Positions 1,352 to 23,937 of a DNA stretch of 26,162 bases are shown in pieces. A model generated the notes under the pieces. It did not search any database and was not told where the DNA came from. It saw nothing but the letters and a program-made list of their open reading frames with translations. The first letter of the stretch is position 1. Every line of letters begins with the position of its first letter. The translations under genes were made by a program, and so were the position numbers. The stretch is taken from positions 221,821 to 247,982 of the forward strand of contig MU001686.1 of NCBI GenBank assembly GCA_010093515.1, read 5' to 3'. The stretch comes from Lineolata rhizophorae. Taxonomy: Eukaryota; Ascomycota; Dothideomycetes; Lineolatales; Lineolataceae.

Positions 1352-4300
1352 ATGTGGCCGTTCTCCCTGCGCCCGCTACTGCTTCCGCCAACGGCCGCGA
1401 CGGCGCGCGTCGTCGGTGGCAGCAGCGGTAGCAGCAGCTGCCGCGGCGGCGGCAGTGGCACCAGTGGCACTGCGTCATTCCTGCAGCGTGCCGTGTTCGG
1501 CCTCTTCGGTTCGTGCAAGCCCCATCACTTCGGTCAGCACCCTATCACGGCTCCCCGCCATCCCCTCGCCTCTGCCCCAAGGGCCGCCAGGCCAGCCCTA
1601 TGCCCCAGTCTCTCTCTTTTTCCTTCCCACCTGCCGTCCCAGAAATGAGCAAGCTAGCTCGCCCCTTGTTGCGCGCACCATGCAAGGCCGCGGCCGCAGC
1701 GGGAGCTCCCGCCGCAGGAGCTCCACTCCTCGAAGCTAGCTGGACAGCGGGCGGCGCAGTCAGCATGGAACCCAACACAGCAGCCCGATTAGCCTTTCGG
1801 AAAGCTTAAAAGCTAATCTCCTTTACGGCGCGCAGCGCGCGCAGGGAATCTCGCCGCCGTACCGGCGGTACTCCCGCTCGCGTATCGGCCCGCGGCCTCG
1901 AGCGAACCATGGGACCACCGCTACCAGCCGCGCCGCGCCTTCACCACCGCGCGAGGTCGCTCGTCACGGCAGCAGCAACAACCCCACCGGTACCTCAGCG
2001 CCTTCCGGCGCCCGCTGTCGCTCTGCCTCGTCCGCGACCCCGTCAACGTCCTCCCCGCCCTCCTCCATGCCCCGCCCACGCGCGCCATCTCGACGGCCCC
2101 GGCGGCGCCGGTCCCCTACGCCGACCTCGCCGTCGGCATCCCCAAGGAGACGGCCCCGCACGAGCGCCGCGTCGCCATCACGCCGGCCAACGTCGCGCTG
2201 CTGCTCAAGAAGGGCGTTGCGCGCGTGCTGGTCGAGCGGGGCGCCGGCGCCGCGGCCGAGTTCACGGACGCCATGTACGAGGGCGCGGGCGCAACTATGG
2301 TGGATGCGGAGCGCGTCTGGGCCGAGAGCAATGTGGTGCTGAAGGTGCGGGCGCCGAGTGGTGCCGGTGATGGTGGTGGGGAGGTGGGTCTGATTAGGAG
2401 CGGGGCCACGTTGATTTCGTTTCTGTATCCGGCGCAGAACAAGGGGCTGGTGGAGGGGATTGCAAACAGGGGCGCGACCTGTTTTGCCATGGATATGGTG
2501 CCGCGGATCTCGAGGGCGCAGGTCTTTGATGCGTTGAGGTGGGTGTTTTGGGATGACTTCTTGGGGGTAGAGAGAGTGGGGTTTGCGGTTTGGTACGGCA
2601 TGTGCGCTGATGTTTGTGACTGATGCAGTTCTATGGCGAATATTGCGGGGTATAAGGCAGTGCTGGAGGCGTCGAACCATTTTGGGCGGTTTTTGACGGG
2701 ACAGGTTACCGCGGCTGGGTAAGTGGACTGACTGACTGAGTGGAGTTGAGTAAAACGAGCGCTTCGTGCTAATTTTGCGTCCTAGCAAGGTGGTTATTCC
2801 CGCTTTTGATTCCCTATGATATTATTTTGACGGTATTCGCGCACAGATACCCCCGTGTAAAGTGCTTGTAATCGGTGCCGGTGTCGCAGGTCTTAGCGCC
2901 ATTGCCACGGTAAGTTGTCAGCCGCCTCGTGGTGTTTGAAGCTGTATTGATAGTATCTCCAGGCGCGGCGTCTGGGCGCTATTGTCCGTGGTTTTGATAC
3001 CCGTGAAGTCGTTCGTGAGCAGGTCCAGTCTTTGGGTGCCGAGTTCATCGAGGTGGACATGAAAGAGGAAGGATCAGGCACGGGCGGCTACGCAAAAGAG
3101 ATGTCCAAGGAATTCATCGAGGCCGAGATGAGGCTCTTCAAAGATCAGTGTCGGGAGGTAGATATCGTAATTACTACGGCGCTGATTCCAGGGAAACCGG
3201 CGCCAAAGTTGATTACAGAAGAGGTGAGATCCTTTATTCTGGAAGGGACGAGGAGCTGCAGCTGATCGTCGATGTAGATGTTGGACGTGATGAAACCAGG
3301 CTCTGTTGTGGTTGATCTAGCGGCTGAGGCCGGAGGTAACTGCGCAGCGACTTCTCCTGGGAAACTTGTCAGGCACAAGGATGTCACCATTATTGGTGAG
3401 TTGGAGACAAAACTATGTCGTAGAATTTTTGTATTGATATTGAGCAGGCTACACTGATCTTCCCTCGCGTCTTCCGACACAGTCGTCAACGCTGTATTCG
3501 AACAACATCACAAAGTTTCTGCTTTCAATGTCGCCCGAGCCGAAGCACTTCGGGATCGATCTTAACGACGAAGTGGTCCGTGGGGCCATAGTCACCCACA
3601 AGGGCGAGATTCTCCCTCCGGCGCCTCGGCCGGCACCTCCACCTGCGCCCGCAAAGCCAAAGCCTGCAGCGGCGGCTGAGGAAACGAAGGCTTTGACTCC
3701 ATTCCAAAAGACGTCGCGCGACGTTGCAACCGTGACGACTGGAATGGGCACCGCTGTCGCGCTTGGAAAGATGACCGAGCCGATTTTTATGGGCAATGTC
3801 TTCACCTTCGCCCTGGCCGGCTTGATTGGGTACCGCGTAGTCTGGGGCGTCGTTCCCGCGTTGCACTCGCCCCTAATGTCCGTCACAAACGCGATCTCGG
3901 GTCTCGTCGGCGTCGGCGGCTTCTTCATCATGGGTGGCGGACTCCTTCCGGAGACGATTCCGCAGCTGCTTGGCACCATCTCGGTGCTCCTTGCCTTTGT
4001 CAACGTTTCAGGCGGCTTCGTCGTCACTAAACGCATGCTCGACATGTTTAAGCGGCCCACGGACCCGCCAGAGTACCCATGGCTGTGGTCGATCCCAGGT
4101 CTAATCTTCGGCGGTGGCTACCTCGCGGCCGCGAGCACGGGTATGGCGGGACTTGTCCAGGCAGGTTACCTCGTCAGCAGTGTGCTGTGCATTAGCTCTA
4201 TCTCGGGACTATCAACGCAGGCCACGGCACGGCAGGGCAACATGCTAGGCATGCTGGGCGTCGCCTCGGGCGTGTTGGCCTCGTTGGCTGCGGTTGGGTT

Positions 4301-5654
4301 CCCGCCGGACGTGCTGATGCAGTTCGCTGGGGTGGCTGGTATCGGTAGCTTGGTGGGCTTCGCCATCGGCAAGCGCATCACGCCCACAAGTCTGCCGCAG
4401 ACGGTGGCGGCGCTGCACTCGGTCGTCGGGCTTGCGGCCGTGCTGACCAGCATCGGCTCCGTCATGGCGCACGTGGCAACCGACCCGTCGACACTACACC
4501 TAGTTACCGGCTACCTCGGCGTCCTGATCGGCGGCATCACCTTCACCGGCTCCATCGTCGCGTTCCTGAAGCTCGCAGCTAAGATGTCCTCGCGGCCCAC
4601 GATGCTGCCGGGCCGGCACCTCATCAACAGCGCCATGCTGACGGCCAACGTGGCCACCATGGGCGCCTTCGTTACCATGGCGCCCGGCGCGCCCGTCCTC
4701 GCGGCCGGCTGTCTGGCTGCCAACACGGCACTCAGCTTCGCCAAGGGGTGGACAACGACGGCCGCCATCGGCGGCGCCGACATGCCAGTCGTAATCACGG
4801 TGCTGAACGCGTACTCTGGCTTCGCGCTCGTGGCCGAGGGCTTTATGCTGGACAACCCGCTGCTGACGTCGGTGGGGGCCCTCATCGGCGCCTCGGGCTC
4901 CATCCTCTCGTACATCATGTGCCTGGGCATGAACCGGTCACTGACTAACGTGCTCTTCGGCGGTATCGCGGCGCCGCAGGTAGCGGCCAAGATCGAGGGC
5001 GAGGTCCAGAAGACGACGGTGGACGAGACGGTGGACGCGCTCGCGAACGCAGAGAACGTCATCATCGTCGTCGGATACGGGATGGCGGTCGCTAAGGCGC
5101 AGTACGCCATTTCAGAGTTCACTAAGGCGCTGAGGGCTAAGGGGATCAATGTGCGGTTCGCCATCCATCCTGTTGCGGGTAGGATGCCGGGTCAGTGCAA
5201 CGTGCTGCTGGCTGAGGCGGCGGTCCCGTACGATATCGTGCTGGAGATGGACGAGATCAACGATGACTTCCTCGAGACGGATGTCACGCTCGTGATTGGT
5301 GCGAATGACACGGTTAATCCGATTGCGTTGGAGAAGGACTCGCCGATTGCGGGCATGCCGGTGCTGCATGCGTGGAAGAGCAAGCAGGTTGTGGTCATGA
5401 AGCGGAGTATGGCCAGCGGTTATGGTGAGTTCTGGTCTTCACACATTTGTTTGTAGCCGCGTTTTGCGCTGACGAGTCCTTTCTTATGTAGCCGACGTGC
5501 CGAACCCACTGTTCTACAAGCCGAACACGAAGATGTTGTTCGGCGATGCGAAGACGACTTGTGATGGTAAGTTAAAAGCTTTCAGAACTTATGTGGATGA
5601 TGGAAGCTGATTTTAGGCATAGCTATCAAGCAGAACCTCGAGGGCCGCAATTGA
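1352..5654 (+). CDS. NNT: Mitochondrial NAD(P) transhydrogenase (proton-translocating), multi-exon
   Basis: This inner-membrane enzyme uses the proton gradient to transfer hydride from NADH to NADP+, supplying matrix NADPH. The single chain has the animal/fungal order: NAD-binding domain I from about residue 143 (start [18 protein letters not shown] motif near 325), membrane domain II (about 515-970), and NADP-binding domain III ([10 protein letters not shown] near 1004, then [10 protein letters not shown] and GANDTVNP). Proposed exons: 1352-1508, 1845-2538, 2629-2718, 2786-2789, 2847-2909, 2963-3223, 3278-3395, 3448-5424, 5492-5566, 5623-5654; the total is 3471 nt, in frame, 1156 residues. 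Exons from about 2100 on follow the family closely. The 5' end is uncertain: the frame before 2225 has no in-frame ATG back to a stop at 1814, so an upstream exon is required. I chose ATG 1352 (good context, [10 protein letters not shown] start) joined by a branch-like GCTAATC at 1812 and an acceptor at 1844. ATG 1645 ([12 protein letters not shown]) is an alternative, and the resulting presequence is unusually long. The last intron has two in-frame acceptors (5616 and 5622). Confidence 0.93.
2786..2789 (+). other. NNT: Four-nucleotide microexon (CAAG) of the transhydrogenase gene
   Basis: Exon 3 must end at 2718 because GTAAGT follows and reading on meets TAA at once. The next clear coding begins at 2847 ([15 protein letters not shown]), but joining 2718 directly to 2847 gives the wrong frame and a stop. 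Keeping CAAG at 2786-2789 completes GGC and adds AAG, giving the family sequence AAGKIPPCK. It is flanked by a 67-nt intron (branch GCTAAT, acceptor TAG) and a 57-nt intron (donor GTGGTT, acceptor CAG). A variant of 7 nt (donor GTTATT at 2793) would insert one extra Val. This is inferred from frame and family sequence, not from transcript data. Confidence 0.75.
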
Positions 5655-11954: not shown

Positions 11955-13510
11955 TGTGCCACTTCTAGATCGCCCCTTTTGTGCTCGTCGTTGTCGCAGC
12001 AGCGCGGCGCGGAGCCCGGAGGAGGTTTCTCACGGCCGACTGTGTTTTAAGCTGCCTGCCCGTCTGTCCGTCGCGTTTGTTCTTTGTGCGCCCGGGAGCA
12101 CAGAACTGGTCCAAAACACACCACGTCTCCCGTACCCTGATCTCAAACAGAACGAGTCGACCGGAGGCTTGAGACCCTCCAGGGCACAGTTGATTCATTC
12201 TAAAAGGTTGAAGAAGGGCCCGCCGCCTCAAAGGCCGACCTCGAGTTGGGCTCACTTTCCCAGTCTTTCTCTTCCTCCTTTGACACCGGCCTCCGCGTCC
12301 CCTGTTCCTCAACGTCTTTTAATCTACCCGCCCGTGGGAAGACACGAGAGTGCGCTGGTCCCTCGCAGCGCCCGACTATTTTGGGGACCTTGTATATTCG
12401 ACCCTGGCCACCCTCACCTTCTCGCCCATTACCGCCTATCGTCATAGTATGCGCATCCTCGCAGCCCTTTCAGTTTGCTGGGACTGACAATATATTTTGA
12501 TAAGGCTTTGGCAGCGCACCGGCCTGGTCCTGTCCGCCTTGCTGGGCAAGCGTACCTGACAGGAGTCAATCAACCCGATCCCTAGCTGGTTGTTCTCGTG
12601 CAACTCTCCGACTGGCCCTTCGAGCTGAACCCTACCGTCCGACAGCCGGCCTACCCGCCGAGCCAATCACCACTCCGCCTGCCACCATCATCCTGGACTC
12701 CAACCCGATATCCACGACGCCGGCTGAGCAGTTGCAACCACCCTAGGCCAGAGGAGCCAAGGCCCACCGCAACCCTACACTGCGCGGACGGTAGACTGCA
12801 TCGAGCTTTGCTGCGTTAATCTGGGCCGCGGGCTTGTCTGACTGCATTGTACTTATTTCTGGTGCCTTTCGTCCCTCACCACTTCCTTGGCCCTGTGTGT
12901 GCCCAGCGCTCCTTCCACCGGCGTCCGTTCATTTTTTTTCTCTCTCTCTTTTGCCTGTCTGTCTGCGGCTGCGCAGGACGCGCCTCCGCCCAGCTAGCCC
13001 GCAAAAAGAAGTCGTTCGTCCGAACTTTTTTCAGCTTTCGCTTCTTTACCTTGCGCACCGGACGGAATCCGTCGTGGAACCTTGCCGTGGAGGGGCTAAC
13101 CCCCCAGCGAGCTGAACTCTACGTCTCTCATTCAAAGGAAGAGATAAAGCTTTCGCGCGGCGCCCCGTCGGGGTCCATTTTCGCGGGGTACAGATTCTGA
13201 GGGTGGTTACTGTGTGGCTGCGGATTTCTGCGCTGACGATCGTCTTGCTTACCCTCCTCCGTCAACATACCCGGTGGGAGGCTTGGCTGCGTCAGTAATT
13301 ACTCTCCGCCGCACTGCCTCACTCCCACTTCACCACTCCCACATCACCTCGCTGCGGTCTCACTTCGCGGCAACTCTTGCATATTAGGCCTTCGCCTCCC
13401 CCACCGAGCCGCGTCTCACTGCTTCCTTCTTTTCCCCCCCGCGTGCCTCGGGTTTCGCCCTCGAGGTTACTTGTACCTTTTGATTATATTCTCTCCTCCG
13501 CCAACACAAA
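11955..13510 (+). promoter_or_regulatory. Probable very long 5' leader/promoter of the 13511 gene, nearly ATG-free
   Basis: On the + strand I find a single ATG (at 12449) between 11955 and the start codon at 13511; the last 1059 bases have none in any frame. The same interval carries 14 CAT triplets, so the lower strand is not short of ATG. Such one-sided depletion is expected where a transcribed leader is under selection against upstream start codons. CT-rich tracts typical of fungal leaders occur at about 12245-12310, 12930-12970 and 13385-13440. The transcription start is not known; introns may be present. The triplet counts are seen directly and the leader is inference. Confidence 0.55.
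12932..12949 (+). repeat. Poly-T plus TC dinucleotide tract
   Basis: A run of eight T is followed by CTCTCTCTCT, then shortly after by repeated TGTC units. It is a simple pyrimidine tract within the presumed leader of the 13511 gene. Confidence 0.8.
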
Positions 13511-15535
13511 ATGGAAACCGTTATGCAGCTTCAGAGACCTCACCTCAATATCCCGGAGCGGAATTGGATTCGCAAACCGGCTTTGACTAAAATCGAGCCC
13601 ACGCAAACTATGGAGAAGCCATACATCCCTCGGATTCATTCATCTGCGAGCAACAGTTCCGCAGGCTCTTCCTATTCGGACCGTGTGCAAGTTCTCGCAC
13701 CTCCGACCATCGTCCACCCGGATCCCAACGCCAGTCCTACGAGCGACTATGATCGCCGGTATCTGTCTGACGAAGAGCCTCTTTCCCCCGACGTCTCCCC
13801 TCTCGATCCCGACCTGCCAATCCCCGACTTCGACGACGAAGACGGAATCAGCATGCTCGACGTAGATGCCATGGTGCAGCCCAAAATGCAGTACGAGGCC
13901 CCTCAGCAGGAGCAAGAAGAGGAGCCCGAGTCGGCACTAGAACCCACGCGCAACTCCTTCTACGAGATCCTCGAAGCCAAGCCTATCACGCCCGTGAAGA
14001 GCAAGTGCGCCGTCGCGGTGCAGCTCGTGTCGGCCGGGCGGCCCCGCGTCGTCGAGGTGCCGCTGTCTGCGCAGCAGTCGTCGCGCAGCGGATCAGTGGG
14101 TGCCGAGGACAGCGACAGGTCGCCGCCGCAGCAGCAACAGCAGGCGGAGCCCCGTCCGGGATCGCGCGAATCACCCATTCCGGTCGCACGAGCGGTGGAC
14201 TCAGTAGTACCGACTGTGCGTGCACCCGTTCCACGGCGGCGCCTACACACGTCAAACGGAGCCCCGACAGCACGGCCGCCACCTCCGTCGAACTACAGCT
14301 CCGGTGCTGGTGCGGCGACGACCGGGTTCTACTCTGCCGTGGGCATCAACGCAGAGATCGCCAACATGGATACTCCCAGGCCGACGTCCTCTATCCCGAG
14401 CCCACTGGCCCGCCCCAGCTCACCCACCATCGCCGTCCGCCCAGCAACCTCGGCGGGCGACAGCCCGTCTTCGCCCGCTCAAACGACTCAAGCAGCGACT
14501 CCTCTGCCGCGCAATCGCTCGCCTCTCAGCGTTTCGACGACTAGGCCCGTCACTCCTCGCTCGTCCCACGTCCCGCTCGCCTCCATCTCGACTCCCTTGC
14601 GCGACTACTCCAGTGCCGGCGGCATGCAGTCCCCCTTGCCCACGATGGCGAGCGCGGCCGTGCCCCGCAGCGCCGCCCGCCGCACGCCGCGCAGCACGCC
14701 CATCGTGCCGCGCATCCCGACCGAGTACCTCGGCAGCCCGCATCTGTACAGCGAGTTCAACCCGGGCATGGTCTCGGAGCCGGCCGAGAGCGGCGGCCTG
14801 CCTCACGGCGCCGCCGCCGCCGCCTCCGAGCTCTCCCTGAGCGCCTCCTCCCTGTCGCCCAAGAGCCCCGCCAAGAAGAAGCTGCGCAGCATCTCGCGCA
14901 CCATATCCATCGCCAAGATGGCCGTCTCGCTCGGCGGCGCGCACACCGGCAGCGGCGAGAAGGCCGGCACCGCCGCCGGCGCCGACGCCAACGACCACCC
15001 GACGCCCGCCCACACGCCCGCCCACGGCGTCAGCTTCGCCCCCGCGGCGCCCCGCACGGCGAGCCTGCCGCACCGCCGCCACCGCTCCACGACGCTGGAC
15101 CGGCACGCCTTGGCCGGCGAGCCGGGGCACCCGAGCTGGGCGGCGCACCTGGGGTCCGGGCCGGCGAGCACGGCGCCCTCGTCGGCGGCGCACTCGACGG
15201 CCGCGTCCAGCATCGCCGAGGCGTCGTCGGTGACGAGCGTGTCGGCGTCCAGCCTGGACGACTTGACGCCGGTGGTGGCGGCGCCCGTGAGGAGGCGCGC
15301 GAGCACGGCTGCTACGGCGGCACCATCGGCGAGGCCCAGGGCGAAGATGGTGCCGAGGGCCGCGGATGAGAGGGCGCCGCCGATTGAGATTCCGCCGTTC
15401 GATAGCGACGATGAGGAGGAAGGGGAGGGGTTCAAGGTGCTGAAGGGGAGGGGCAAGGTGAGGAAGGCGAGGCCGGAGGAGAAGGGGATTGTGGGTGGTG
15501 CGAGGGAGGGGCGTAGGAGGATGGTTTTGGATTGA
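13511..15535 (+). CDS. Large low-complexity, probably disordered protein of unknown function (674 aa)
   Basis: A single uninterrupted frame opens with ATG in good fungal context (CACAAAATGG) and ends at TGA 15533-15535. I do not recognise a family. The protein is rich in Ser, Pro, Ala, Thr and Arg and has no signal peptide, membrane segment or folded domain that I can see. Visible features: a start with regular-looking residues (HLNIPERNWIRKPAL), an acidic stretch at about 84-112 (FDDEDG), Gln and Glu runs near 130, a more ordered-looking segment at about 148-180 (NSFYEILEAKPITPVKSK), many SP/TP sites (possible phosphorylation sites), a basic amphipathic segment near 450-475 (KKKLRSISRTISIAKMAV), and an acidic patch near 630 (FDSDDEEEGEGF) followed by a basic tail. 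A nuclear or cell-cortex adaptor role would fit, but that is speculation. The length and steady character of the frame, the clean start and the ATG-poor leader support a real gene. Confidence 0.85.
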   Translation: METVMQLQRPHLNIPERNWIRKPALTKIEPTQTMEKPYIPRIHSSASNSSAGSSYSDRVQVLAPPTIVHPDPNASPTSDYDRRYLSDEEPLSPDVSPLDPDLPIPDFDDEDGISMLDVDAMVQPKMQYEAPQQEQEEEPESALEPTRNSFYEILEAKPITPVKSKCAVAVQLVSAGRPRVVEVPLSAQQSSRSGSVGAEDSDRSPPQQQQQAEPRPGSRESPIPVARAVDSVVPTVRAPVPRRRLHTSNGAPTARPPPPSNYSSGAGAATTGFYSAVGINAEIANMDTPRPTSSIPSPLARPSSPTIAVRPATSAGDSPSSPAQTTQAATPLPRNRSPLSVSTTRPVTPRSSHVPLASISTPLRDYSSAGGMQSPLPTMASAAVPRSAARRTPRSTPIVPRIPTEYLGSPHLYSEFNPGMVSEPAESGGLPHGAAAAASELSLSASSLSPKSPAKKKLRSISRTISIAKMAVSLGGAHTGSGEKAGTAAGADANDHPTPAHTPAHGVSFAPAAPRTASLPHRRHRSTTLDRHALAGEPGHPSWAAHLGSGPASTAPSSAAHSTAASSIAEASSVTSVSASSLDDLTPVVAAPVRRRASTAATAAPSARPRAKMVPRAADERAPPIEIPPFDSDDEEEGEGFKVLKGRGKVRKARPEEKGIVGGAREGRRRMVLD

Positions 15536-19421: not shown

Positions 19422-22400
19422 CTACCTAATAAAAATCTGATCGGCGCGATTCCAATTATTCCTCGCCTTGTTGACGTGGTCGAGTCCCAGAAAGGCCTCC
19501 ATGTTGACGTCGCGCAGGCGGTCGAACAGGACGTCGTCGTCGTCGAGGTAGTCGGGCTTGGCGTGGGGCGCCGGGGGCACGAGCGCAAAGCGAATCTTCT
19601 CGAACTGCTTGCCCTTGATGCCGGTGCGGCGCGAGAGGCGCTCCTTGGTGTCCTTGAAGAGCTCGCCCTGTGGTGCAACGCGAACGGAAGTCAGGATGCG
19701 GGGTCGGGGTGAGAGCGGAAAGAGAGGGAAGGAGACTTAGAGGGGGTGGGGGGCAAACGAAATAAGACTTACCGGCACCACCACAAAAATAAACGGCACG
19801 TGATGCCCCTTCGCCGGATCCTTATCGAAATGATAGCAACTCGCCAGCGCCTTCTCCAGCGTCCCGCCTTCCGCCCCATCCTCTCCCACAACCCCAGCCC
19901 CATCTTCCTCCGCCCCAACCATCCGCGCATCATTACCTGCCCCACCATTCCTCATCACGCCCCCTTGCACCTCCTCTCCCTTCTCCCCCTTCTCCTCCCT
20001 CTCCGCCATCTCCGCCAACTCCAAGTCGTCGTCCTTGCTCCGCCGCTCCGCGTACAGCAGCCTAAACTCGTTGATGCTCAGCACCGGGAAGCTAAGCTGG
20101 AGCTCGCGGTTGACCTTGGAGGCGTGGACCTCGACGAGGCGGAGGTCCTCGGGGCGAGCTTCCCTGAACGGCTGACCCGGCGAACCCCCCTGCTGCTGCG
20201 GGGGCGACGACGCCACGTCCGCGATGCGCGCCTTGCGGATCAACCCGCGTAGTATGTCCTCGACCGTGCCGTTCTTCTCCACCAGCAAGTCGTACTGTTC
20301 CTCCTTGGTGATGCCCTCGGGCAGCCACAGCACCTTGACGGCGCGCCTCGTCTCGAGCTCCGCTAGGGGCACCTCGAGCACTTCGTAGTAGAGGCTGTCG
20401 TGGCGGATGCTCTGGGCGGCGACGCCGCCGTAGCCGCCGTACGCGCCCGCGCCCGGCGTCAGTATCGTGCCCACCGTCGTGTTGGGCAGGCGCTTGACGG
20501 GCAGCTTGGGCCGCGAGTTGGCGAAGGCGACGGTCCAGAAGCGCAGGTGGGAGCCGGGCGCGCCGACGCGCTCGCCCACGGCCGTGGCCAGCTTGTCGTA
20601 CGTCATCTTCTTGGACAGCACGAGCACAAAGTGGGCGTCGTCGGACCCACCGCGGCGCGGCATGAACGAGATGCGCATGCGGTTGTTGAGGAAGTCGTAG
20701 AAGTCGGGTGCTGTTACGTTGGTGGTGGCCTCGGCGATGCGCGCCGCCTCCTTCTCCGGTATCGACTTCTGCACCGTGATGATGTCACCGTCCTGTAGCT
20801 CCGACTGGAACAGCGTCTTCTTTGGGTTCATCGCCTCGATCATGCTCGACTTGATTTCCTCGTACAGCTTGAACGACGTGCCTTCGGGCCACCTCAGCAT
20901 CTGCATGATCTTGCCCTGCATTTCCGACACTTTCTCCTGGACCGCGAAGTAGAATGTCCCCGCGCCTAGCAGAGTCTGCGAGAATGGATCCCAATGCTTG
21001 ACGAAGAGGAGTATGGCGCGGTTGTTAACCACGTTCTTAAGGTCCACGAGGCGGTCACCAAATAGTGGCGTGTCGTCCTCATCAACTCTAGCCGCCTTCT
21101 CAATATACATCTTCAAACCCGCCATTCGGGTGCTAAACTTGTTCGCCGCTTCCTCACAGCTGATGCTCAAGTCGTGGAGCGGCTGGTCCGGGCGCACGGT
21201 GCCATTCTGGCGATTCACCATGATCCAAGGCCGTATGTAACGGGCATTAAAACCGAGATCCTGGGCGACCATATCCATGAATCCGGAGACGGGAGTGGCG
21301 CGGAGGATGCGGTACGTGCGGGGAGCGGCTTGGGGAACGTGGTCGAATCCGCCTTTCCACGCCACGATGTCGAAACCCTGGTAGTTACGGAAATTCTCTT
21401 CTGTACAAACCTGAACTTCCATATAGAAGGGCGCTTCCTCCCGCTCTTTCCGGCGTCGCTCCGCCAAGGCGCGTTCTTCCGCAAATTTCCTGCCTGAAGT
21501 AAATTGTTACCCAAGAAAAAAAAAATGAATAAAGGACGAGGAGAGGGATAACTTACCGAGATGCTCCGGCGGCTTGACAATCTCACTAGTCTGCAACACC
21601 TCGTCAACCCGGCTTCGGCGGATATACACCAGCATGTACGCGTTCATAGAGCGCTTCAAGGACCACTGGCGCGTGTGCGGATTCCGCTGCATCGCGTTGC
21701 CGTTGGGCAGCCTGTCGTAGTCGCCGCCAAAGTTCTCCTCGATGGCCTCCTTCTTGAGGGCGCGCGTGACGCGGTCGTCGTCGAACTTGTAGAACTCGCC
21801 GTCCTTGTCCGGCTTGATGAAGGCGTAGTAATGGCCCGCGTTGAGCTCGCCGCTGTGAACTAGCACGCCGTGCAGCGCGTACTCGTAGGGCTCGCTCCGG
21901 TCCGCCGTGTCACTCAGGTACGGCGTCGCATCCCAAATCTCGGGGAACTCGTAACGGTCGTTGACCTTGGTCATGGCGTCGCGGGTGAAGTCGTACTCGA
22001 AGCGCTTGAGCTGCAGGTGGAGCACTTCCGGGAAGGACTCGAAGATGACGCCCTTCTTCGCGTCTTGGAGGCCAAAGCCCTCGGCGAAGTATTTGTTCTC
22101 GCCGTCCATGGTCTCCACCTGGATGTAGTCCTTGAAGCTGTCGTCCAGGTTCTTGTTGCCGCTGACGTTGAGCTGCAGATCCCAGAAGTCCTCGATACGC
22201 GACGACTCGAACTCGACGTTGATGCAGGAAATGTACGTCTTCATCTTGCCAACGAACATCCTGGGTAGCGCATTCTCGGCTTCCGTTCCCTTCATCTTCT
22301 CCTCTAACCGCTCCATCAATATGCGCGACAGCTCCTGCACATCTTGCTGCTCGAAGATTTGTTTTGAGTCCCAGCCAAAAGAGCCGGTGAGCTCCTGGGT

Positions 22401-23937
22401 TGACACGGCGCTATCGTTGGTCTGGAGGAGATAGAAGAGTCGTTGCAAGGCATATGCACAATTTGAGCGTGCATCTTCCTCATCTTCGGTGGGTATTTGA
22501 TAAACAGCCTGCGCATAAAAAAGATGGCAGTCAGTCAGTTTGGGCACGCAGAAAACCATGGGTGGTCGATGGGTCGACGACACACGCACCTTTCGAAAAG
22601 CAGTGGTAAAATACAGAGATTGGAGAAGGGAGTTCAGGTAGCAAGTTGCACCCTGATTTCGAAGGCCAACCATGCCGGTTTCCTTTTTGGAATCGTAGCT
22701 GTCGAAGGTTAGCGATTTGAGCTCGGCCATCAATCGGCGCAATCTGATCCACATTGGAGCGGACCAAGGTTAAACGAAAGGTGAAAAAAAAAAAAATGAA
22801 AAAGAAAAAGAAAAAGCAACAGCGGGTACGCCGTACTGTATGAAGTTATGCCACAGCACGCCGGTAGGGTCCTTGATGACCCGCACATAGGCGGTGATGT
22901 TCGCACAATCATTTTCCACCATCGGAATGCCCCTCTCGTCGAATTGGGCGGCGAAGATCTTTCTCAGCTCGGCGAACCGGGTGAAGCCCCAATCGCTCTC
23001 GTCGGCAGTGAAGCGGTGGTTGGCGTGGTGGGTGACGTAGACGGTGGGCTCGCGCGGGTTCCACAGCACGAGCAGGAACTGCACGCAGGCATGCCAGTTC
23101 TCGTCGGGCTTCTTGGCGGCCGCAGCGTCGCCGCCGTTGGGGGCGTCCTCGTCGTCGGCGTCGTCGGCCGCGGACCCGTGCTCGAGGTAGAAGGACACGA
23201 ACTCGACCTGGTTGCCCATGGGGAAGAAGAGGACGCGCCAGGGCTGGCCGCCGCAGGTGAAGGCGGGGCCGTGCTCGCGCTTGCCCAGCGACCGCCACCC
23301 CGTGATCTCCCACGTGTGCACGGCGTAGTCGTCCACCTCGAGGTCGCCGAGCGGCGGCAGGTGTCGCTTGGCGATGGCGTCGAAGTCGTCGGCGCGCAGC
23401 GGCGGGGCGACGTCGGCGTCGGCGGCGGCGGCGGCGGCGTCGTTGTTGGCGACGGCGCCGCCGTTGGGCGACGCGGCGGCGCCGTTCTTGCCGTCGACGA
23501 GGACGCCGTCGTCGGGCGTGATCTCCGCCACCGAGTTGTCCTTGGCCTCGTAGTCGGGCTCCATCAGCACGTCGTTTCCGATCTGCCGGCCACGCGAGGG
23601 GGGATGGATGGTTAGTCTAATGCCCTCGTCCATCTCGAGATAAGAGCGCTCGCGGAACGGTGGGAAAGAGGAGAGACTGGGCGGAGGGCGAAGGGAAGGG
23701 CAGCAGGCCGGAAAGAAGGGCGGGAAGAGGAGCAGAACGCGAGGGGGAGCGAACGCGTTCGGAGGGGGGAGAAAGGTTTGTGGTTCGGGCGTGGAGCATG
23801 CGAGCAGCGTTGCTCGTAGGTCCTTCCCGGGGCGCGGGGGGGAGGGGGGGCAGGCAACGGTGGCGCAAAGGTGTGTGTGTGCAGGAAGCGGGGGGAGTCG
23901 CGGCGCGGTTCAACGACGGGCAACGTACCTGGTCCAT
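19422..23937 (-). CDS. UBP15: Ubiquitin carboxyl-terminal hydrolase of the USP7/Ubp15 family
   Basis: A cysteine protease that removes ubiquitin from proteins; homologues are human USP7, yeast Ubp15 and fission yeast Ubp21/22. Proposed exons on the - strand: 23937-23929, 23582-22837, 22698-22590, 22508-21557, 21493-19773, 19667-19422. They total 3783 nt in frame, 1260 residues, close to the family. Every intron has a GTRNG donor and a CAG acceptor, and four show clear CTRAC branch sites. Domains: Ala-rich N-terminus (a GGC repeat at 23421-23439 encodes poly-Ala); MATH domain at about 90-240, including DWGF (about 200-203), the peptide-binding motif of USP7; catalytic domain at about 258-590 with the Cys box NQGATCYLNSLLQ (Cys about 271), the His box ELNAGHYYAF (His about 514) and KFDDDRV (Asp about 531); then C-terminal ubiquitin-like/ICP0-binding-type regions to the end. 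All catalytic residues are present. Oddities are an acidic Asp/Ala insert in the MATH domain and a Glu/Gly-rich insert near 1120-1165. ATG 23633 is an alternative start, reading through the branch and acceptor of intron 1, which I consider less likely. Confidence 0.95.
23583..23928 (-). other. UBP15: First intron of the deubiquitinase gene, after a 9-nt coding exon
   Basis: The donor is GTACGT directly after ATGGACCAG. The branch-like GACTAAC lies at 23617-23611 and the acceptor CAG ends at 23583. The 346-nt intron is much longer than the others in this gene and is CT-rich on the coding strand. Splicing joins Met-Asp-Gln to Ile-Gly-Asn-Asp without changing frame. Confidence 0.7.
23829..23850 (+). 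other. Potential G-quadruplex motif (G4-G7-G7) opposite intron 1
   Basis: The + strand, which is the template strand of the deubiquitinase gene, carries GGGG, CGC, seven G, A, seven G. This satisfies the usual four-tract rule because the seven-G runs can each supply two tracts. Whether it folds is unknown. Confidence 0.5.

What the first reader, a model, noticed from the sequence alone, without database searches (positions are those of the whole stretch)
2719..2846. Four-nucleotide microexon in the transhydrogenase gene
Between two well-fixed coding blocks (ending at 2718 and starting at 2847) the only way I find to keep the frame and restore the conserved Gly-Lys of domain I is to retain CAAG at 2786-2789 (or CAAGGTG with one extra Val). 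Exons this short are near or below the size usually thought recognisable by exon definition and are missed by automatic gene finders. Skipping it shifts the frame and gives an early stop, so it could act as a splicing switch for a mitochondrial NADPH source.
Basis: partly seen in the sequence, partly recalled or inferred. Interest (0 to 1): 0.72.

Follow-up and report, generated by a model that had tools for sequence, protein, structure and literature searches.

The report
Four-base exon in fungal transhydrogenase gene
A fungal gene for a mitochondrial-type energy enzyme very probably contains an exon only four bases long, needed to keep the protein readable; such tiny exons are rare and easily missed but already known in fungi, plants and animals.

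Summary
The gene (about 1.8-5.65 kb, + strand) is the only proton-translocating NAD(P) transhydrogenase found in this fungal genome. Between exons ending at 2718 and starting at 2847, the solution that keeps frame and conserved sequence is intron 2719-2785 (67 nt), exon CAAG 2786-2789, intron 2790-2846 (57 nt). The surrounding 24-residue block is ungapped in 80 of 80 bacterial relatives (the closest of 465), with G 80/80, K 76/80 and R 4/80. Chance rate for such a Lys/Arg exon: 1-2%. Acceptor and donor flanking CAAG are the best internal ones. The seven-base variant adds a residue seen in none of the 80.

The 'switch' reading is untested and less likely. A frame-shifting exon in a single-copy gene, between two ordinary short introns, fits constitutive inclusion by intron definition. 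Precedents: a 1-nt exon in Fusarium CYP621A, 20 nt in Trichoderma Xlr2, and a constitutive 4-nt exon in human MPC1. New member of a known kind, and a good annotation case. No RNA data or fungal orthologues could be examined, and the downstream donor is weak.

The parts
1817..2538 (+). open coding block of the transhydrogenase gene ending in the dI N-terminal domain; the start of translation and the 5' exon(s) upstream are unresolved
   Evidence: open frame; translation; PF05222; no single-intron join from ATG 1352 passed the filters
2539..2628 (+). intron, 90 nt, GTGGGT...GCAG
   Evidence: joined protein aligns to relatives without a gap there
2629..2718 (+). coding exon ending ...TGQVTAAG(GG) in phase 2
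2719..2785 (+). intron upstream of the microexon, 67 nt, GTAAGT...CTAAT...CCTAG
   Evidence: donor is the strongest of the stretch (U1 -9.8), the only internal YAG acceptor, CTAAT at 2769
2786..2789 (+). 4-nt microexon CAAG: last base of the Gly codon plus the Lys codon
2790..2846 (+). intron downstream of the microexon, 57 nt, GTGGTT...CACAG; weak donor; branch-point-like TTGAT at 2806 and TTGAC at 2827
   Evidence: U1 -5.9 kcal/mol, 5.9% of 4000 sampled GT sites are as strong or stronger
2847..2909 (+). coding exon starting ATA CCC CCG (I P P), containing the GAGVAG nucleotide-binding motif
2910..2962 (+). intron, 53 nt
2963..3223 (+). coding exon
3224..3277 (+). intron, 54 nt
3278..3395 (+). 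coding exon
3396..3447 (+). intron, 52 nt
3448..5424 (+). long coding exon, membrane domain and most of the PNTB domain
5425..5491 (+). intron, 67 nt
5492..5566 (+). coding exon
5567..5616 (+). intron, 50 nt
5617..5654 (+). last coding exon to the stop (LEGRN, stop)

Best explanation
CAAG (2786-2789) is a constitutively included 4-nt exon of the single-copy NNT-type NAD(P) transhydrogenase gene of a filamentous fungus. Shown by sequence: two canonical GT-AG introns of ordinary length (67 and 57 nt) flank it, and its inclusion keeps the frame and the length-fixed TAAG-K-hydrophobic-PP block. Inferred: each short intron is recognised as a unit (intron definition), so exon length is no obstacle. 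Because the two introns lie four bases apart, their spliceosomes probably assemble one after the other: first the 67-nt intron with its strong GTAAGT donor and CTAAT branch point, then the 57-nt intron, whose weaker donor now reads GGCAAG|GTGGTT. Skipping, or retaining either intron, gives an early stop and presumably mRNA decay, so such products would be errors rather than isoforms. It probably arose when two introns came to lie four bases apart in one conserved block.
For: Reading frame and 1115-residue open protein. Four Pfam families over cut-off in one chain. NNT chains 6que and 6qti at about 1e-130, with no gap across TAAGK(I/V)PP. 80 of 80 bacterial relatives (the 80 best of 465 found) ungapped over 24 residues, G 80/80, K 76/80, R 4/80. 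With the outer sites fixed, CAAG is the only listed internal exon with no stop, frame shift or extra residue. Flanking signals: only internal YAG acceptor, best internal donor, CTAAT. Chance rates. Intron lengths 67 and 57 lie within the 50-90 nt of eight control introns of the window, 128 nt does not. No second copy found: PF02233 matches only this gene, and the one other PF05222 hit, on C13, reads to me as saccharopine dehydrogenase (my reading).
Against: No transcript or proteome data. No fungal orthologue could be compared: genome contigs is prokaryotic, viral contigs gave no relative, and the own genome has no relatives here. The 2790 donor is weak, with +4 G and +5 T, while all eight control donors have +5 G; it is the second weakest of the nine, next to a USP7-like gene donor at -5.8. 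The second intron has no CTRAY motif, only TTGAT and TTGAC. The Lys is not universal: 4 of 80 have Arg, and the 1ptj chain has Thr. The failed gene finder parsed this stretch otherwise (introns 2719-2789 and 2793-2896). The 5' end of the gene is unresolved.
Confidence: 0.9

Rival explanations
1. Seven-nucleotide microexon CAAGGTG (2786-2792), with donor GTTATT at 2793, giving G-K-V-I-P-P with one extra valine.
For: Frame kept, no stop.
Against: Donor much weaker (U1 -2.6 against -5.9; 35% of 4000 sampled GT sites are as strong or stronger). The extra residue falls in a block with no insertion in 80 of 80 relatives or in the five alignments shown. It may occur as minor donor slippage.
Confidence: 0.04
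2. A single in-frame intron with no microexon: 2705-2846 (GTTACC...CACAG, 142 nt), deleting VTAAGK; 2719-2896 (GTAAGT...CTTAG, 178 nt), deleting [18 protein letters not shown]; or GC-AG introns 2711-2846 (deleting AAGK) and 2714-2846 (deleting AGK).
For: All keep the frame without a stop. The 2705 donor is about as strong as the 2790 one (-5.6 against -5.9).
Against: Each removes residues that are invariant or nearly so in the 80 relatives (T, A, A, G each 80/80, K 76/80); 2719-2896 removes the GxGxxG motif. Lengths of 133-178 nt are outside the 50-90 nt of the eight control introns. The GC donors GCGGCT and GCTGGG were not scored but look poor.
Confidence: 0.03
3. A regulated switch: conditional skipping of CAAG or retention of the 57-nt intron tunes transhydrogenase level through truncated, decay-prone mRNA.
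For: Skipping and retention both give early stops. The 2790 donor is weak. A switch-like microexon is reported in Trichoderma Xlr2 (PMC11121469, passages). [quoted passage not shown] In PMC9929638, four of five short mammalian microexons were not constitutively spliced in HeLa reporters.
Against: No expression data. [quoted passage not shown]
Confidence: 0.08
4. A spliceosomal twin intron (stwintron): one intron nested in another and the whole 128 nt removed in two steps.
For: Two adjacent short introns totalling 124 nt within 128; stwintrons are reported in Hypoxylaceae and Aspergillus (starts of abstracts in the listing).
Against: Removing all 128 nt shifts the frame and stops after AAGYPRVKCL.
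Confidence: 0.01
5. Genome sequence error or a pseudogene, the real locus having Lys in an ordinary exon.
For: A single assembly, no reads available.
Against: The rest of the gene is open over 1115 residues, and two complete introns with fitting signals and lengths would have to arise by error.
Confidence: 0.02

Closest known systems
1-nt exon in CYP621A P450 genes of Fusarium (PMC12940212, parts 1 and 2 of 3 read)
   Same: Filamentous ascomycete; a tiny exon inside a conserved motif, needed for frame; a 139-nt stretch, over twice the 56-nt median intron, pointed to it; missed in most gene models; AG and GT borders.
   Different: 1 nt rather than 4 nt, a P450 of unknown function, and supported there by 20 orthologues and 18 SRA reads.
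4-nt microexon of human MPC1 (PMC9929638, outline with abstract and the Discussion read)
   Same: 4 nt, frame-shifting, in a gene for a mitochondrial carrier protein; constitutively included.
   Different: Flanked by introns of over 12 and 3 kbp and, by that paper, spliced by exon definition with distant branch points; here the introns are 67 and 57 nt.
20-nt switch-like microexon of Trichoderma virens Xlr2 (PMC11121469, passages)
   Same: Filamentous ascomycete, non-3n microexon inside a conserved domain, missed by annotation.
   Different: 20 nt and glucose-dependent; no regulation is shown here.
1-nt microexons of plant APC11 and VPS55 (PMC8831610, passages)
   Same: Ultra-short internal exons needed for the conserved frame, absent from reference annotations.
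   Different: Plants; 1 nt; conserved in diverse land plants, whereas conservation here is unknown.
Basidiomycete bglA genes with 5- and 6-bp minimum exons (PMC9142197, passages) and Phanerochaete P450 microexons (PMC1184071, passages)
   Same: Fungal genes with very small exons and short introns (bglA means 59-81 nt; P450 introns frequently 45-55 bp).
   Different: Basidiomycetes, different genes; the passages do not say how each tiny exon is spliced.

Membership tests
microexon (internal exon of 30 nt or less between two spliceosomal introns) | size 30 nt or less | tested here: met
   4 nt, 2786-2789
microexon (internal exon of 30 nt or less between two spliceosomal introns) | GT-AG splice sites and a branch-point-like motif on both flanks | tested here: met
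   GTAAGT/CTAAT/CCTAG upstream; GTGGTT/TTGAC/CACAG downstream, the second donor and branch point being weak
microexon (internal exon of 30 nt or less between two spliceosomal introns) | inclusion needed for the conserved reading frame | tested here: met
microexon (internal exon of 30 nt or less between two spliceosomal introns) | present in mature mRNA | not testable with these tools
   no transcript data held
switch-like (regulated) microexon | condition-dependent inclusion | not testable with these tools
   no RNA data
stwintron | an internal intron interrupts a splice signal of an external intron and the whole stretch is excised | tested here: not met
   excising 2719-2846 whole shifts the frame to a stop
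proton-translocating NAD(P) transhydrogenase (NNT type) | AlaDh_PNT_N, AlaDh_PNT_C, PNTB_4TM and PNTB in one chain | tested here: met
   four families over cut-off in one 1031-residue query (its first six letters were a slip)
proton-translocating NAD(P) transhydrogenase (NNT type) | close match to solved NNT | tested here: met
   6que_A 1e-130 and 6qti_A 1.4e-130 for a 367-residue query of the first domain
proton-translocating NAD(P) transhydrogenase (NNT type) | mitochondrial import | not tested
   N-terminal exon unresolved

The most novel reading that the evidence does not exclude
The 4-nt exon, with its weak downstream donor, is a conserved and regulated splicing gate: metabolic state sets how much of the 57-nt intron is retained, and so how much mitochondrial NADPH the fungus can make through its only transhydrogenase.
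Probability: 0.07. Interest if true: 0.6.

Novelty: new member of a known kind. Interest (0 to 1): 0.33.

Why it matters
It suggests that ultra-short exons also occur in core-metabolism genes of filamentous fungi, and that a gene finder with a minimum exon length would break this enzyme: it would have to drop the Lys with conserved neighbours or split the gene (inference from the enumeration). It is also a clean test case for intron-defined splicing, with two ordinary short introns four bases apart that probably cannot be spliced at the same time. No earlier report of a transhydrogenase microexon was found in the library searched: 0 papers hold both 'transhydrogenase' and 'microexon', and none of the 8 papers concerns it by title or start of abstract. 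The spelling 'micro-exon' was not searched together with transhydrogenase.

Tried and rejected
A home-made gene finder did not converge: predicted introns rose from 603 to 2824 over four rounds, and in the last round it parsed this stretch as introns 2719-2789 and 2793-2896, not as the CAAG exon. I treat its output as unusable. A motif-pair survey of intron lengths in 226 kb showed a modest excess at about 44-91 nt over reversed sequence, but 214 against 209 pairs in all and similar excesses in other bins, so it carries no weight. A first regular-expression count of the Gly-Lys block (run over 100 loci, 20 of them from the own genome) matched 66 of the 80 bacterial loci (65 GK, 1 GR); it was replaced by alignments of all 80. 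The two introns were compared as possible duplicates: no similarity (local score 6.0, shuffle mean 6.95, 452 of 500 shuffles as high). Relatives were sought in viral contigs: none. A second gene copy was sought in the genome: none found. A single intron joining ATG 1352 to the main frame was sought with strong donor, YAG acceptor and CTRAY: none passed; joins from ATG 1645 or with two introns were not computed. Stwintron reading rejected on frame.

Full report
WHAT THE GENE IS. The window lies on contig C17 of a 31-Mb fungal genome in 48 contigs. There are 67 HET-domain matches in it, some of them pieces of one gene because the search goes exon by exon; that this domain marks filamentous ascomycetes is my own knowledge. 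The + strand gene from about 1.8 to 5.65 kb encodes a single-chain proton-translocating NAD(P) transhydrogenase. Pfam finds AlaDh_PNT_N, AlaDh_PNT_C, PNTB_4TM and PNTB, and the best solved relatives of its first domain are nicotinamide nucleotide transhydrogenase chains 6que and 6qti, E about 1e-130 (that these are the mammalian mitochondrial enzyme is recalled). It is the only copy found: both PF02233 hits are exons of this gene, and the only other PF05222 hit, on C13, reads to me as saccharopine dehydrogenase.

THE OBSERVATION. The exon that ends at 2718 closes with ...TGQVTAAG in phase 2 (GCTGG). The next fixed exon opens at 2847 with [21 protein letters not shown]. Between them lie 128 bases. 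Removing 2719-2785 and 2790-2846 and keeping CAAG gives GGC AAG ATA, G-K-I, and an open frame of 1115 residues from 1817 to the stop. Skipping CAAG gives AAGYPRVKCL and a stop. Keeping the second intron gives [13 protein letters not shown] and a stop. Keeping the first gives a stop soon after AAG (GTAAGTGGACTGACTGACTGA).

IS THE BLOCK REALLY FIXED. One scan found 465 prokaryotic relatives and kept the best 80. All 80 of these 80 align over a 24-residue stretch around the site without a gap: the Gly is G in 80, the next residue K in 76 and R in 4, then V, I, M or L, and the second P in 80. These are the closest relatives, so the count says little about distant ones. The chains 6que and 6qti read TAAGKVPP without a gap; against universality of the Lys, the 1ptj chain reads TAAGTVPP, also without a gap in this block. 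So the length of the block is the stronger constraint, and it asks for 4 nt between GCTGG and ATACCC.

ALTERNATIVES. With the outer sites fixed, the list of GT-AG internal exons (both introns at least 30 nt, exon up to 90 nt) has 11 members. Four keep the frame, two of these contain a stop, and CAAG and CAAGGTG remain. The latter adds a valine, with 0 of 80 relatives showing an insertion, and uses a poor donor (U1 duplex -2.6 kcal/mol, against -5.9 for the CAAG form). Single introns that keep the frame (donors GT, GC or AT at 2695-2759, acceptors AG or AC at 2800-2899) number seven. Two are GT-AG: 2705-2846, which deletes VTAAGK, and 2719-2896, which deletes the nucleotide-binding motif. Two are GC-AG and delete AAGK or AGK. 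Three use an AC acceptor. Removing the whole 128 nt as a twin intron breaks the frame.

SIGNALS AND CHANCE. Of eight AG dinucleotides in the stretch two are YAG: 2785 and 2846, the two acceptors used. The strongest of ten GT sites are 2719 (-9.8) and 2790 (-5.9), the two used; next is 2833 (-4.4). CTAAT at 2769 is a good branch point for the first intron; the second has only TTGAT at 2806 and TTGAC at 2827. Eight control introns in the window, six in this gene and two in a neighbouring USP7-like gene, are 50-90 nt long with U1 energies of -5.8 to -9.7 and G at +5. The microexon's introns fit in length, but the second donor is the second weakest of the nine and lacks +5 G. In dinucleotide shuffles of the stretch, a 4-nt exon with Lys arises in 0.13% of 20,000, with Lys or Arg in 1.1%, and with Lys and CTRAY in 0.025%; genomic GT..AG 128-mers give 7, 27 and 1 of 1384. 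For genomic stretches of 118-138 nt, a 4-nt exon with any sense codon is found in 3322 of 30,765, Lys or Arg in 536, and Lys or Arg with a YAG acceptor, CTRAY and a donor of -5.8 or better in 12. These genomic sets include the window. The last filter was set after seeing the site, so 1-2% for Lys/Arg is the fair figure and the signals are extra support.

HOW IT PROBABLY WORKS. Shown: the sequence anatomy. Inferred: short fungal introns are recognised as units, so a 4-nt exon is no barrier, but two spliceosomes probably cannot sit on sites four bases apart, so the introns go one after the other. The first has the stronger signals and probably leaves first, after which the second donor lies on an ordinary long exon. 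Weakness of that donor may cause some intron retention with an early stop. That is the only sequence hint towards regulation, and I rate regulation unlikely. [quoted passage not shown]

WHAT IS KNOWN. A 1-nt exon in Fusarium CYP621A is described with 20 orthologues and SRA reads; there too a long stretch, 139 nt against a 56-nt median intron, pointed to the tiny exon (PMC12940212, parts 1-2 of 3). A 20-nt switch-like exon is described in Trichoderma Xlr2 (PMC11121469, passages), 5- and 6-bp minimum exons in basidiomycete bglA (PMC9142197, passages), small exons in Phanerochaete P450 genes (PMC1184071, passages), a constitutive 4-nt exon in human MPC1 (PMC9929638, outline and Discussion), and 1-nt exons in plants (PMC8831610, passages). 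Literature searches answered are. The present case is therefore a new member of a known kind, in a gene for which I found no earlier report.

VERDICT. Observation confirmed, microexon reading about 0.9, switch reading unproven. Interest is moderate to low because the kind is known and transcript proof is missing.

Noticed in passing
window 1352-1850: The 5' end of the transhydrogenase gene is unresolved: the main frame (from 1817) has no Met before the conserved domain, candidate starts that I see are ATG 1352 and ATG 1645, and no single intron that passed the filters joins ATG 1352 to it. More introns, perhaps another small exon, are likely here.
   Followed up: partly
window 2725-2740: The upstream intron carries a short ACTG tandem run (GGACTGACTGACTGAG) with two CTGAC motifs far from the acceptor.
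   Followed up: no
window about 19737-22769 and beyond, - strand: USP7-like ubiquitin-specific protease gene: UCH, USP7_ICP0_bdg and USP7_C2 domains, with introns 22589-22509 (81 nt) and 21556-21494 (63 nt) used as controls.
   Followed up: partly
window 13484-15535, + strand: A 683-codon open frame rich in Ser, Pro and Ala; its part 13502-15535 has no Pfam match at E 0.001.
   Followed up: partly
G000 (own genome): 67 HET-domain matches, some being pieces of one gene and several with in-frame stops; as I recall, typical of a filamentous ascomycete.
   Followed up: no
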